Shown here piece by piece: positions 57,070 through 62,309 of a stretch of 64,000 bases of DNA. Position 1 is the stretch's first letter. Each line of letters begins with the position of its first letter. The translations under genes were made by a program, and so were the position numbers. The notes beneath the pieces are model-generated. The model was not told the origin of the DNA, made no database searches, and worked only from the letters and a program-made list of their open reading frames with translations. The stretch is from Marvania coccoides (taxonomy: Eukaryota; Chlorophyta; Trebouxiophyceae; Chlorellales; Chlorellaceae), in the NCBI GenBank assembly GCA_963854735.1, contig OY978097.1, positions 2,542,001 to 2,606,000 on the forward strand. The letters are read 5' to 3'.

Positions 57070-58564
57070 ATGTCTGGACAAAAAGCAATTCTGAATGGTG
57101 AGATCGCATCGGCTATAAAATATTCTGTACATTGTGCAGTTTCCTGAGCAATTGACGCAGCATATCCCTGATTATACAATGCAATAGCGTTAATATATGC
57201 CCGATTGTCTTTATGTGCGCAGGATTCGGCCGCATTGGTGAGGTCTCCTCTGGAAGAGCGGGAAAAGGGTCATTGTTTGGAAGCCCCTGGTTTAAATGCC
57301 AGTGAATCTAACTTCATTTCGTGTCTGCGCAGGCCGCCTGGTCATGCGGATCGGCTTTGACGCCGGCTTTGATGACTATGAGGTCGTCCACATCAACGAC
57401 CTTGCCTCGGTGGAGAGCTCCGCCTACCTCCTCAAGTTCGACTCTGTCCACGGTGCGCAGATTTATAGAATTATAGAGAAAGATTATTATTACAAGTAAA
57501 GGAGCCCTGCTTTTAGCGCATACATTCATTCAACTATTTAGAACCAGACGCACACCACCATTCAACAACGAAGAATTTTAAGATTTTAAGAATTTTAAGA
57601 CCTCTATACTCTACTTTAGAACAATTCCTTTACATTCATGTTTTTTAATTCTTTCCTCCTGCTTTCTCTCTCAACTCCAGGCACCTGGCCCCACGAGGTG
57701 GACGTCGTGGATGACACCATCGTGATCACCCACGCCACCACTGGCGCCAAGTTCACCATCACCTACAGCCAGTGCAAATTCCCCGCCGACATCGACTACG
57801 CCAGAATCGGCGCCACCATGGTGCTGGAGGGAACCGGCGTGCACCTCAACCGCGCCACGCTGCAGCCCTACTTTGACGCCGGCATTAAAAAGGTGATCGT
57901 TTCTGCGCCCGTCAAGGACCCCAACCCTGTGCTCAACATCGTCTACGGCGTCAACCACGACCTATACGACCCTGCCGTCGATCACATCGTCACCGCCGCT
58001 TCGTGCACCACCAACTGCCTGGCGCCCGTCGTGAAAGTCATTCTGACGAAGCTGGGCATTGCGCACGGCTGCATCACCACCGTGCACAACGTGACAAACA
58101 CCCAGACCGTGGTGGACGCGCCGAACGTCAAGAAAACCGACCTGCGCCGTGCCAGGTCCGCGCTGGTGAACCTGGCGCCCACCTCCACGGGGTCTGCCAC
58201 CGCCATCGCCCTCATCTTCCCCGAGCTGAAGGGCAAGCTCAATGGGCTGGCCATCCGTGTGCCGCTCATCAACTCTTCGATCACTGACTGCGTGTTCGAG
58301 GTGAAGAGGAGCACCACCGCTGAGGAGGTGAACGCGCTGCTGAAGGAGGCGTCAGAAAACGAGCTGAAGGGCATCCTGGGGTACGAGGAAAGGCCGCTGG
58401 TGTCCACCGATTACGTCAACGACGCCCGTCCGAGCGTCGTGGATGCTCTCAGCACGCAGGTGATCGACGGAACAATGGTAAAGATCTATTCATGGTACGA
58501 TAATGAATGGGGATACAGCGCGCAAGAAGAAAAGGTAATTCGGATGGTGGCAAAGTCGATGTGA
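57070..58564 (+). CDS. ArsJ-associated-type glyceraldehyde-3-phosphate dehydrogenase
   Basis: Phosphorylating GAPDH, 348 residues. Exons: 57070-57097, 57223-57237 (15 nt), 57333-57452 and 57681-58564. The nucleotide-binding NGFGRIGRLVMR is assembled from three exons. The active site AASCTTNCLAPVVKVI has Cys163, with His190 in TTVHNVTNTQTVVDAPN. Sequence after the active site is telling: VTNTQTVVDAP, DLRRARSALVNLAPTSTGSA, IFPELKGKLNGLAIRVPLIN, EVNALLKEASENELKGILGY and DALSTQVIDGTMVKIYSWYD match my memory of GAPDHs encoded beside arsJ in bacteria, not the VHAYTATQ/SKTVDGPS pattern of glycolytic or plastid enzymes. In the bacterial pathway it uses arsenate to form unstable 1-arseno-3-phosphoglycerate for ArsJ to export. 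No transit peptide is seen, so cytosolic action is inferred. ArsJ lies 1.7 kb downstream on the same strand. Confidence 0.88.
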
Positions 58565-59308
58565 GCAGAAGAAGTCACCAAAAGCGGCGTGGGCAAATTT
58601 TTGGCTAAACCCCTCTCTACGCAAAGTAGTAGAACGCATGCATGCTCAGTTTTTGTTCCTTTTGTGTTTGGACATAATCTCAATCTTATAAATGAACGAT
58701 ATATGCTAATAACATAAAGGGGCGGAGAACTGCTGTCGGGGTAATATTCCTTCAAGGGATTGAGAAGTGCCGCCCCAATAAAGGGATCCCATAAAACTAA
58801 CAATCACAGACGACTTAGCACTCCATCTCGCATAAAATATGCCACATGAGAATGCATTCTCATATGACAGCACATTGGCCAAATGTTTTTTGAAATGAAG
58901 TTTTTTGAGCTCAGGCTTTCCAGTTCTAGTGGGCAACCCGCCAGCTATTATTTTTGCAGGGGTCTCACTCGCGAGTATCCCCCTTTAGCCACGCTTTTTG
59001 CGTTTTTCATTTTCATTTTCATATCGTCGGTGCACGAGGGGGAAATTCACGAAACCCTCCCCGGGCCCTGATTTCTTGATTCTAAAATTATATTGAATTG
59101 TTATCGTTAATTTACGAGCTGCAAGACAGCTCGTTCATGCCTTCACCGCCGAGAAATTATTATAATCCATATTTAAACTAGGTACGTGAACTCTGCGAAG
59201 GAAGCCTCACCTCCCGCACAATCTGTTTTCTATTTTTCTGGCATTGGTGATCAACGCAGGGAGCGCCCAACAGGAGACGTTTGTGTGGGACTCCTTAATA
59301 ACTTTAAC
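58565..59308. other. Intergenic region GAPDH to uncertain gene
   Basis: 3' flank of the GAPDH gene and upstream sequence of the uncertain gene at 59309. The frame of that gene is open back to about 59186, with a possible splice acceptor (ATCAACGCAG) ending at 59260, so a 5' exon could lie here. Confidence 0.4.
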
Positions 59309-59937
59309 ATGGAAAAGGAGGTTGACAGCGAAATTCGCGTGACGGAAGGAAGACTCCCTCACAGGCTTTTTCACCATGGCAAAACTACCCACATTGCACA
59401 CGATTACGTGCCGCGCAGCAGGAACGGCCCTGCCGCTGATGTCCTTGAGCGGAAGCGGCAAAGGGACGACGACTTCGATGACAGCTTCGTTATGGAGATG
59501 GAGGGGCGCGAGGAGTATGAAATTGGCGCTGTCACCATTGCAGTCACGGAGGGCGGCCCCATCCAACAACAAACGGCGCGGAAGACTCAGGCTGAGCGGA
59601 ATGAGGCTTCAGATAAAAATTGGACACCTGCGGTCGAGATGGTGGTGCCAAGCTTTCTCGAGATGGCCAGCTCGCAGGAGGAATTGCGGAAAATGCCGAG
59701 CCGGTCTGAGAAGGATGCATTTGAGCTCGGCATTCAAAAGGCAGCGTCCCACTCGACACCTTCTTGAATCTGAAAGAGCACGCCAACCGCCTCAGATTGC
59801 AGGGCTGGGCTGATATGATCCCCGTGAACCACGAAAGAAGCGGCTCACAGCTGCCGGAGAAAAAGGACGACCTGAGGAAGCTGCTGCTGGAGGTCATCCC
59901 CCAAGATATGCTGACCTCAAAGCGAGTTGGTGTATAG
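59309..59937 (+). CDS. Uncertain gene between GAPDH and ArsJ, frame interrupted
   Basis: Unrecognised coding-like segment. From ATG 59309 a frame runs 153 codons to a stop at 59767 (MEKEVDSEIRVTEGRLPHRL and RSRNGPAADVLERKRQRDDD are typical). A second frame, open from about 59719 to the stop at 59937, contains LKEHANRLRLQGWADMIPVN and KKDDLRKLLLEVIPQDMLTS, helical and charged like real protein. The two frames are offset by one base. Either a single-base frameshift (error or decay) separates them, or an intron joins them: weak GTGGTG donor at 59642, good TTGCAG acceptor ending at 59801, phase 0 on both sides. No domain is recognised. Its place between two arsenic-type genes on the same strand makes it a candidate accessory gene, but that is inference from position only. 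Confidence 0.35.
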
Positions 59938-60282
59938 CTTTTGCCAAAGCTTTATGAATCTGGCCCATGCCCTAAATAACGCTTAAATATTTAATCGAAT
60001 TTTGATGCAAAAAAATAGGGGGGAAACGCGTGTTTCCGTGAGGTACCTCCCGCTCAAAATAATAATCGCAGGGCCCTAATATGGTTTGTTAAAAAAATAT
60101 GGTTTGGGGGTTTTAGGGTTTAAGCTTTCTAGCTTGCCAGCTCGGTTTTTTTCATAACGAGAAGTTGCAACATTTAAAAGCGGCAGCCACCGTGAAGGAA
60201 TCTTTTAGTTTTATACTTGGAAACATGCTGCTGAAATCATTTTTAAATTGGGAGAGTGGGCGCTGCGCAAACTTGAGCAGAA
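59938..60282. other. Intergenic region upstream of ArsJ gene
   Basis: AT-rich promoter-sized spacer. An in-frame TGA just before the ArsJ ATG supports that start. Nothing else seen. Confidence 0.45.
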
Positions 60283-62309
60283 ATGAAGCTCGTTTGCTGT
60301 CCGAGCACCCATCTCGATGGACTGCTCAAATTGGGGCTAAAATGCGAGCTCGACGGCCTGCTGAGCGTCGATGGCGTGTATGAAGACGATGGGAAAGTAA
60401 CGTGCTGTCCTTCCAAGGTGAGGCGACGCAGAGAAAATAAAAAACTGTTAAATAAAAAAAGCCAAAATCAACAATAATTGCATGCATTCAATATAATTCT
60501 ACATCAAACCCCTTCATAATCAAGCGCAGGAGGAGCTGGGTGACTTGGGCTCCAAGGCGGTGAAGGCAGACCCTGAAAATGCCAGCGGCATCCCCTGCAA
60601 GGTGGTCGACGCCGATGGCGCCGTCCTCCACGAGGGCCACGCCGTCTCCCTGGAGGACCCCGGCGCCCCCGTCCCCCCCGCCAAAGCAACTTCTTTCATT
60701 GGCAGAAAGAAGGAAAAGTACGGCGCATTGCTGCCCTTCGCCATCATCTCCGTGTCGTATCTACTCTTCACCATCACCGACGGTGCGGTGCGCATGATTG
60801 TGCTGCTTCACGCCTACCAAAACAATTTCACCGCCCTGGACGTTGCCATCATGTTCACACTGTACGAGGCGGCAGGGGTGGTGACCAATGTGGTAGCAGG
60901 CATGCTGGGCGCGCGGTGGGGCATCAAAACCACGCTGCTGAGTGGCCTGTGCATCCAGCTCGCGGGGCTGGGCATGCTGTTTGGCTGGCAGACGTCGTGG
61001 AGCAAAGCGCAGGCAATTCTCTACGTCACCGCCTCGCAAATGCTGTGCGGCGTGGCCAAAGACCTGACCAAGCTGGGTGGCAAGACGGTGACCAAGCTGG
61101 TCACCCCCGAGGGCCGCAACTCCTCGCTGTTCAAGCTGGTGTCATTCATCACCGGATTCAAAAACAGCTTGAAGGGCGCGGGGTACTTCCTGGGCGCTGC
61201 CACCGTGGGCGTCAACTACTACATGTCGCTGGGCATTCTGTGCGTGCTGGTGCTGCTGGCGATGCCCTGGGCGGCGGTGGGGTTGTCCAACCAGCTCGGC
61301 CGCGCCCGCAAAGAAAACGTGCGGCTGTCGCAGCTGTGGAACAACTCCCACAACATCAACGTCCTGTCCCTGAGCCGCGTCTTCCTGTTTGGCTCGCGCG
61401 ACCTCTGGTTCGAGGTCCCGCTGCCCTTCTTCCTGCGGTCAGCGGCGTCTGGCCTCAGTTGGTCCCGCGCCCTTACCGGCGCCTTCCTCGCCATCTTCAT
61501 CATCGTCTACGGCCAGGTCCAGTCCTGGACGCCGCAGCTGCTGCTGCAGCCGCTGCGGCAGTCCCCGCCCGACAAGTACGCTGCGTTCTGGTGGTGCTCC
61601 ACGCTGGTGGTGCCCACCTCCATTCTGGGGGGCATCATGCTGGGGTCGGACCTCTTTGGCCCCAGCGTGCCGCAGGCAGGCCCCATCGTGGCCATCACCG
61701 TCCTGCTCTACTCGTTCTGCATTCTGTTTGCCGTCAACTCCGCCATCCACTCGTGAGTCTTATTAATTCCATGCACCACTGCATAAGATAGCATCATTGT
61801 GCAAATTCTATTAACACCAGGGCACGAAATTTTCCCCATTCCAAAATCTTAATTAGTTCATTAAATTCTTTCAGCTTTTTTGTCTGAACGCATAGTGCTC
61901 CTTCTTTCTTCTTCCTCCCCCTCGCAGCTACCTCATCGTGCGCTACTCCGAGGGCGACAAGGTGGCCATGCAGGTGGGCGTCTACTACGCTTCCAACGCT
62001 ATGGGCCGACTCACTGGCACAATTCTGTCGGGAGTGCTCTACACCTACGCTGGCAGCAACGATGTAGAAAGGTTTGGGGTGTGCCTGTTCGCGTCAGTGC
62101 TCTTTGCTGCCATTTCCACGGTCGTAGACATTTGGTTGCACGAGGACGCGCCGGGGTCGGGCTGGCTGCGACCTTTCAACCGCTGCATGTGCACTGAGGC
62201 GCCTGTGGCAGACGGAGAAGAGGTGAAGAGAGTGAAGGGAGAGGCTGAAGAAGAGGAAATCGGCGGGGCAGTGGCTGCGGCGATGGTAGTCTCCCCTTCA
62301 ATGGAATAG
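60283..62309 (+). CDS. arsJ: ArsJ organoarsenical efflux permease
   Basis: Major-facilitator transporter of the ArsJ family, 579 residues with about 12 helices. Exons: 60283-60417, 60530-61752 and 61928-62309. In bacteria ArsJ exports 1-arseno-3-phosphoglycerate, which decays outside to arsenate, completing arsenate detoxification. Seen family-like motifs: ITDGAVRMIVLLHAYQNNFT, YEAAGVVTNVVAGMLGARWG, SQMLCGVAKDLTKLGGKTVT, LVSFITGFKNSLKGAGYFLG, NINVLSLSRVFLFGSRDLWF, and AVNSAIHSYLIVRYSEGDKV followed by GVYYASNAMGRLTGTILSGV; the last junction is made by splicing. Before the first helix (about residue 110) is a soluble extension not expected in bacterial ArsJ, with CC at 5-6 and 41-42 and single Cys at 21 and 68, including a twice-used CCPS. 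The C-terminal tail is acidic. Membrane location (plasma membrane or vacuole) is unknown. Confidence 0.9.

What the first reader, a model, noticed from the sequence alone, without database searches (positions are those of the whole stretch)
57070..62309. Linked ArsJ-type GAPDH and ArsJ transporter in a eukaryotic genome
The GAPDH at 57070-58564 and the transporter at 60283-62309 both match, motif by motif, the two-component arsenate detoxification system known from bacteria (GAPDH makes 1-arseno-3-phosphoglycerate, ArsJ expels it). Here the two genes remain neighbours on one strand yet carry three and two spliceosomal introns and the GC-rich codon use of the host, so this is not bacterial contamination. 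I know this system as characterised in bacteria; a spliced, clustered pair in a green alga suggests transfer of a whole pathway, possibly as one fragment, followed by intron gain. Whether it has been described in algae I cannot check.
Basis: partly seen in the sequence, partly recalled or inferred. Interest (0 to 1): 0.9.

Follow-up and report, generated by a model that had tools for sequence, protein, structure and literature searches.

The report
Algal arsenate-detox gene pair, already published
A green alga carries, side by side, two genes that bacteria use against arsenate; the pair is real and belongs to the alga, but this gene neighbourhood was described and partly tested in green algae in 2020, so it is another case of a known system.

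Summary
The GAPDH gene (57070-58564, three GT-AG introns, 348 aa) and the transporter gene (60283-62309, two GT-AG introns, 579 aa) are intact neighbours on one strand of a 22.46 Mb eukaryotic genome. The GAPDH passes NCBI's ArsJ-associated GAPDH model (476.9 bits, cut-off 450). The transporter's best model is ArsJ (367.9 bits, under the cut-off of 400), but 7 of 8 other eukaryotic ArsJ tested also fall under it, C. reinhardtii included. In the trees, eukaryotic ArsJ is one side of a branch from bacterial ArsJ, and eukaryotic ars-GAPDH is one clade among bacterial arsJ-linked GAPDHs, away from the alga's own GapA/GapC. Both window proteins sit beside Nannochloris among green algae: old, not private to this alga. 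Foflonker & Blaby-Haas 2020 (PMC7826186) already described this neighbourhood in green algae, proposed joint acquisition from bacteria, and showed that a Chlamydomonas arsJ mutant is arsenate-sensitive. Here no PGK gene lies beside the pair. Possibly unreported: a Cys-bearing N-terminal, mainly beta domain on many green-algal ArsJ, and ArsJ in acorn worms.

The parts
57070..57097 (+). ars-type GAPDH, exon 1 (start codon)
   Evidence: P0001-P0003 agree across the junction
57223..57237 (+). ars-type GAPDH, exon 2 (15-nt micro-exon, part of the GFGRIGR nucleotide-binding motif)
   Evidence: the motif is present in P0001-P0003
57333..57452 (+). ars-type GAPDH, exon 3
57681..58564 (+). ars-type GAPDH, exon 4 with Cys163 (SCTTN), His190 and stop
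   Evidence: whole protein 476.9 bits to NF033735, cut-off 450
58565..60282 (.). 1.7-kb spacer: a short dispersed repeat (about 58956-59023), a stretch 83% alike to C3:488359-488755 (59034-59438), an ORF without family match (59309-59767); no PGK match
60283..60417 (+). ArsJ, exon 1: N-terminal Cys-bearing extension
60530..61752 (+). ArsJ, exon 2: rest of the extension (to about 60715), then most of the MFS transporter
   Evidence: inner boundary by my arithmetic
61928..62309 (+). ArsJ, exon 3: last helices (to about 62138) and C-terminal tail
   Evidence: inner boundary by my arithmetic
60337..60411 (+). codons of the N-terminal motif (ArsJ residues 19-43)
   Evidence: coordinates from residue numbers by my arithmetic

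Best explanation
An arsenate-detoxification pair of the known algal GAPDH3-ArsJ kind. The ars-type GAPDH (cytosolic by lack of an N-terminal extension, inferred) takes arsenate in place of phosphate and turns glyceraldehyde-3-phosphate into 1-arseno-3-phosphoglycerate; ArsJ, an MFS permease, moves this unstable compound out of the cytosol. Shown here: gene structures, family kinship, trees, linkage. Shown by others: arsJ is needed for arsenate tolerance in Chlamydomonas. Inferred: enzyme activity, exported species, membrane, expression, and the history (descent from bacterial arsJ-GAPDH operons, old gain in eukaryotes, later intron gain).
For: Family models; the alga's own GapA-like and one GapC-like protein score 370.1 and 300.8 bits to the ars-GAPDH model and prefer other models; the window carries the ars residue in 11 of 11 columns that separate ars-GAPDH from the alga's own GAPDHs (the window is itself one of the 66 ars rows and the own sequences are partial); trees; GAPDH before ArsJ on the same strand in 82 of 86 sampled bacterial loci, median gap 17 bases, the order seen here; the one ArsJ lies next to the one ars-GAPDH; no ACR3 and no ArsH match in this genome, in line with the published either/or pattern; published neighbourhoods and Chlamydomonas mutants.
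Against: ArsJ scores under the curated cut-off of 400, although the C. reinhardtii protein does too (380.0). Vibrio work argues that ArsJ exports free arsenate rather than 1-arseno-3-phosphoglycerate. PGK, shown to matter in Chlamydomonas, is not linked here. In Nannochloris, the nearest named relative, the two genes bear distant tags (g03529, g07519), so linkage is not needed for both to persist. The GAPDH tree has two long end branches (own GapA 1.49, L098 1.26) against which the program warns. No expression or biochemical data.
Confidence: 0.6

Rival explanations
1. Same arsenate-detoxification pair, but ArsJ exports free arsenate; the GAPDH product is a short-lived store inside the cell that is broken down before export.
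For: In Vibrio cholerae 1-arseno-3-phosphoglycerate was found in cytoplasmic fractions and not outside, and loss of ArsJ raised intracellular arsenate about 20-fold against about 3-fold for loss of the GAPDH (abstract and section 8 of PMC9601151).
Against: The Pseudomonas model (Chen 2016; not held; known here only as told in other papers) has the organoarsenical exported. In Vibrio a phosphatase-like partner helps; the one spacer ORF that I scanned has no family match, but the rest of the genome was not searched for such a partner.
Confidence: 0.35
2. A plain glycolysis cluster: an extra GAPDH and a carrier for three-carbon phosphates, without a part in arsenic handling.
For: GAPDH is glycolytic and the transporter is MFS; Foflonker & Blaby-Haas raised and set aside this idea. 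The predicted transporter fold matches, among many MFS carriers, organophosphate carriers such as G6PT and GlpT, which fits either view.
Against: Both proteins fall in the ars subfamilies, not the canonical ones; Chlamydomonas arsJ and pgk3 mutants are arsenate-sensitive.
Confidence: 0.04
3. Contamination, misassembly or a recent private transfer into this alga.
For: None found; the linkage rests on one assembly.
Against: Introns, host-like GC3, eukaryotic neighbours; both proteins nest among green algae beside Nannochloris; the same linkage is published in other green algae.
Confidence: 0.01

Closest known systems
Green-algal ArsJ-GAPDH3(-PGK) neighbourhood (Foflonker & Blaby-Haas 2020, PMC7826186)
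   Same: Same two gene families as genomic neighbours in green algae; same proposed bacterial origin and arsenate role; Chlamydomonas arsJ mutant arsenate-sensitive.
   Different: Here no PGK lies beside the pair; the genome's two PGK genes are on other contigs (C3, C9). The paper says that PGK is near in most but not all genomes and that the trebouxiophyte PGK2 genes are not near; I did not test which PGK type these two are.
Bacterial arsJ-GAPDH operon (Pseudomonas; Vibrio var operon)
   Same: Same families, same order and strand (GAPDH then ArsJ).
   Different: Bacterial genes lie close (median gap 17 bases) and have no introns; the window ArsJ core is 36-42% identical to 6 bacterial ArsJ and has 107 residues before the permease against a median of 6 in 86 bacterial ArsJ.
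Cyanidiales red-algal arsJ (PMC9812998)
   Same: Eukaryotic ArsJ, monophyletic with Viridiplantae and other eukaryotes according to that paper.
   Different: There arsJ stands alone, without the gene cluster (one passage read).
Pteris vittata GAPC1/OCT4 pathway
   Same: Works alike: a GAPDH plus a transporter against arsenate.
   Different: Convergent: plant GapC and an OCT carrier, not the ars families (as told in passages of PMC7826186 and PMC9454679).

Membership tests
ArsJ-associated GAPDH (NF033735) | Score over the curated cut-off of 450 bits, best of all NCBIfam models | tested here: met
   476.9 bits, best of 9 families listed
ArsJ-associated GAPDH (NF033735) | Catalytic Cys and His of GAPDH | tested here: met
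   Cys163 and His190, in columns shared with the alga's own GAPDHs
ArsJ-associated GAPDH (NF033735) | Groups with arsJ-linked bacterial GAPDHs, not with the alga's own GapA/GapC | tested here: met
   a branch with SH-aLRT 99 parts 66 ars-type rows from 3 own canonical rows (quick search)
ArsJ-associated GAPDH (NF033735) | Uses arsenate to form 1-arseno-3-phosphoglycerate | not testable with these tools
   needs an enzyme assay
ArsJ (NF033734) | Score over the curated equivalog cut-off of 400 bits | tested here: not met
   367.9 bits. Of 8 other eukaryotic ArsJ 7 are also under 400 (C. reinhardtii 380.0), Ptychodera over (407.0); 2 of 2 bacterial over. I therefore file it as eukaryotic ArsJ in the sense of PMC7826186, not as an NF033734 equivalog
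ArsJ (NF033734) | Best model is ArsJ over the whole transporter, other MFS models far below | tested here: met
   E 6.9e-110 over profile positions 3-390 of 392; the other listed model has 18.4 bits
Green-algal ArsJ of PMC7826186 | In one clade with Chlamydomonas ArsJ | tested here: met
   28 of 28 eukaryotic rows on one side of a branch (SH-aLRT 100); 17 green rows, window and C. reinhardtii included, in one set at 92, while Mesostigma and a pedinophyte lie outside that set. That the C. reinhardtii row P0144 (XP_001702048.1) is the paper's Cre07.g354150 is presumed, not checked
Green-algal ArsJ-GAPDH3 neighbourhood | GAPDH3 and ArsJ near each other | tested here: met
   1.7 kb apart, same strand
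Green-algal ArsJ-GAPDH3 neighbourhood | PGK next to the pair (most but not all genomes of the paper) | tested here: not met
   PGK matches only on C3 and C9; optional in the paper
Arsenate resistance system | Loss makes cells arsenate-sensitive | not testable with these tools
   shown for C. reinhardtii arsJ and pgk3 in PMC7826186, not for this alga

The most novel reading that the evidence does not exclude
Many green-algal ArsJ proteins are a domain-fusion variant: a roughly 80-residue, mainly beta, Cys-bearing N-terminal domain (perhaps of TIG/IPT type) was added to the bacterial permease after its arrival, and its cysteines sense arsenite or redox state, or the domain docks the GAPDH, to gate export.
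Probability: 0.15. Interest if true: 0.5.

Novelty: new member of a known kind. Interest (0 to 1): 0.2.

Why it matters
It adds another chlorophyte genome to a published case of a bacterial two-gene pathway kept together in eukaryotes. The open points are narrower: whether ArsJ exports 1-arseno-3-phosphoglycerate or free arsenate, why some algae have a PGK beside the pair and this one does not, what the algal N-terminal domain does, and how ArsJ came to be in acorn worms.

Tried and rejected
Recent private transfer: disfavoured by both trees. Canonical GapC/GapA: rejected by family scores and tree. Other MFS family: rejected. PGK nearby: no match on C1. Spacer ORF 59309-59767 as a third pathway gene: no family match, a 45-residue piece is 69% alike on C3; left unexplained, perhaps repeat-derived. 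TIG/IPT identity of the N-terminal domain: the likeness is recalled from memory; Pfam gives only weak TIG_plexin matches in 2 of 9 proteins (E 0.095, 0.24), so it stays a guess. A sequence search of solved structures with the ArsJ alignment found nothing at E 0.01; Foldseek on the whole model gave MFS-type carriers in the 50 rows shown (415 matches at E 0.001 or less), which says nothing of the N-terminal domain. A first extraction script mis-assigned some bacterial ORFs and was replaced; only one search is used. Donor: not resolvable, since eukaryotic ArsJ stands at the end of a long branch. Searches of the literature.
Full report
WHAT IS THERE. The window is G000:C1:2542001-2606000 of a 22,462,713-base, 15-contig genome. 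GAPDH has four exons and three GT-AG introns, ArsJ three exons and two GT-AG introns; both join to full open frames. The GAPDH splice model is backed by P0001, a 95%-identical 348-residue protein whose only contig has 1,237 bases. GC3 of the two genes, 0.81 and 0.82, fits the 0.54-0.85 of 23 other long ORFs of the window. Of 10 other window ORFs scanned with Pfam 9 had matches, among them HECT, La, RCC1 and Tho2. This is a native eukaryotic locus.

WHAT THE PROTEINS ARE. The GAPDH scores 476.9 bits to the ArsJ-associated GAPDH model (cut-off 450), its best model. As controls, 6 of 7 other eukaryotic ars-type GAPDHs and 1 of 1 bacterial pass 450 (Chlorella variabilis, 446.6, does not), while the alga's own GapA-like and one GapC-like protein score 370.1 and 300.8 and prefer other models; the second GapC-like protein was not scanned. 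The transporter scores 367.9 to ArsJ (cut-off 400). Of 8 other eukaryotic ArsJ 7 also fall under 400, C. reinhardtii (380.0) among them; only Ptychodera (407.0) passes; 2 of 2 bacterial pass. I take the missed cut-off to reflect a model made for bacteria, but it is recorded as not met.

WHERE THEY BELONG. Searches of the genome show one ArsJ, four GAPDH genes and two PGK genes, neither on contig C1. For the trees I used 27 of the 120 listed ArsJ homologues plus the window and 44 of 86 bacterial ArsJ after thinning at 72% identity; for GAPDH 24 of the 120 listed homologues plus the window, 3 own canonical GAPDHs, and 41 bacterial ones thinned at 78% from 78 of at least 270 residues (82 loci had a GAPDH; 4 short ones were dropped). 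ArsJ: the 28 eukaryotic rows are one side of a branch with support 100; the window is sister to Nannochloris (100) within a set of 17 green rows (92); red algae, diatoms with a haptophyte, three hemichordates, Mesostigma and a pedinophyte lie on the eukaryotic side too. GAPDH: 25 eukaryotic rows form one clade (98) among bacterial arsJ-linked GAPDHs, and a branch of support 99 sets all ars-type rows apart from own GapA/GapC. These were quick searches with SH-aLRT support only; the program warns of two long end branches in the GAPDH tree (own GapA, L098) and of odd letter make-up in L098 and L092.

LINKAGE. The sample is of the most alga-like bacterial ArsJ, not a census. The alga keeps the same order and strand at 1.7 kb. 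The most likely history is ancestral linkage kept in some lines and lost in others; this is inference.

WHAT IS IN PRINT. Foflonker & Blaby-Haas 2020 (PMC7826186; abstract, outline and passages read) describe the ArsJ-GAPDH3 neighbourhood, with PGK in most genomes; say that the two genes are both present or both absent in the genomes analysed; propose acquisition from bacteria as a functional unit; and show that C. reinhardtii arsJ and pgk3 insertion mutants grow badly on arsenate. PMC9812998 (one passage) reports that red-algal arsJ groups with Viridiplantae and other eukaryotes and stands alone in Cyanidiales.

MECHANISM. The pair most likely turns arsenate into 1-arseno-3-phosphoglycerate and removes arsenic through ArsJ. 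Whether ArsJ carries the ester or free arsenate is disputed: in Vibrio cholerae the ester was seen inside cells only and free arsenate is thought to leave (PMC9601151, abstract and section 8). Nothing in the sequence decides this. No ACR3 and no ArsH match was found in the genome, in keeping with the published either/or pattern; six-frame searches can miss split genes, and ArsC was not searched for.

A DETAIL THAT MAY BE NEW. The window ArsJ has 107 residues before the permease, with six cysteines. Over 121 eukaryotic rows (the window and the 120 listed homologues) the part before the permease has a median of 72 residues (0-276) and a median of 0 cysteines; 42 of 121 have at least 60 residues and at least 3 cysteines. 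In 86 bacterial ArsJ the median is 6 residues (0-34), and 1 has two or more cysteines. A motif, roughly L[RK]C[RE][FW]...V.C.P and searched as a looser pattern made after looking at the sequences, occurs in 39 of 121 eukaryotic N-termini, all among the 66 of 60 residues or more, and in 0 of 86 bacterial; 200 shuffles of the 66 gave a mean of 0.155 and a maximum of 2. Besides the window, the 15 hits that carry an organism name are all green algae. Against a simple green-algal rule: Mesostigma (Cys-rich N-terminus) does not match, nor do 16 named rows printed, which hold hemichordates, Ostreococcus, red algae, diatoms and a haptophyte but also a pedinophyte, Apatococcus, Raphidocelis, Ulva and two truncated models (C. 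reinhardtii, Chlorella variabilis). AlphaFold2 of the Nannochloris protein, on an alignment chosen for rows with this part, makes residues 1-80 a mainly beta unit of six strands and one short helix, block means of pLDDT 79-93 except one block of 59. In the main text of the 2020 paper 'cysteine' does not occur and the one 'N-termin' concerns another protein. Sensing or docking is a guess.

VERDICT. Real, correctly read, native, old, and already published as a system; this locus is one more member. Interest 0.2.

Noticed in passing
P0157, P0169, P0176: ArsJ occurs in three acorn worms (Saccoglossus, Glandiceps, Ptychodera), the last two on contigs of 27.5 and 44 Mb; they form one set (99) on the eukaryotic side of the ArsJ tree, and Ptychodera passes the ArsJ cut-off (407.0 bits). 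Among the 120 best matches to the Ptychodera protein, many of them unnamed, I saw no other animal name. No held paper has both 'ArsJ' and 'hemichordate'. Origin and a GAPDH partner were not checked.
   Followed up: partly
window 60283-60715: Cys-bearing N-terminal, mainly beta extension on many green-algal ArsJ, not seen in 86 bacterial ArsJ.
   Followed up: partly
window 58956-59023 and 59034-59438: The spacer holds a short dispersed repeat (24 further matches in the genome) and a stretch 83% identical to C3:488359-488755.
   Followed up: partly
window 59309-59767: ORF of 152 codons with no family match; a 45-residue piece is 69% alike on C3.
   Followed up: partly
window 57223-57237: A 15-nt micro-exon encodes part of the GAPDH nucleotide-binding motif.
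   Followed up: no
L085: A contig titled as a Bifidobacterium breve MAG carries an arsJ-GAPDH pair whose GAPDH groups with other actinobacterial MAGs; the title may be a mislabel.
   Followed up: no
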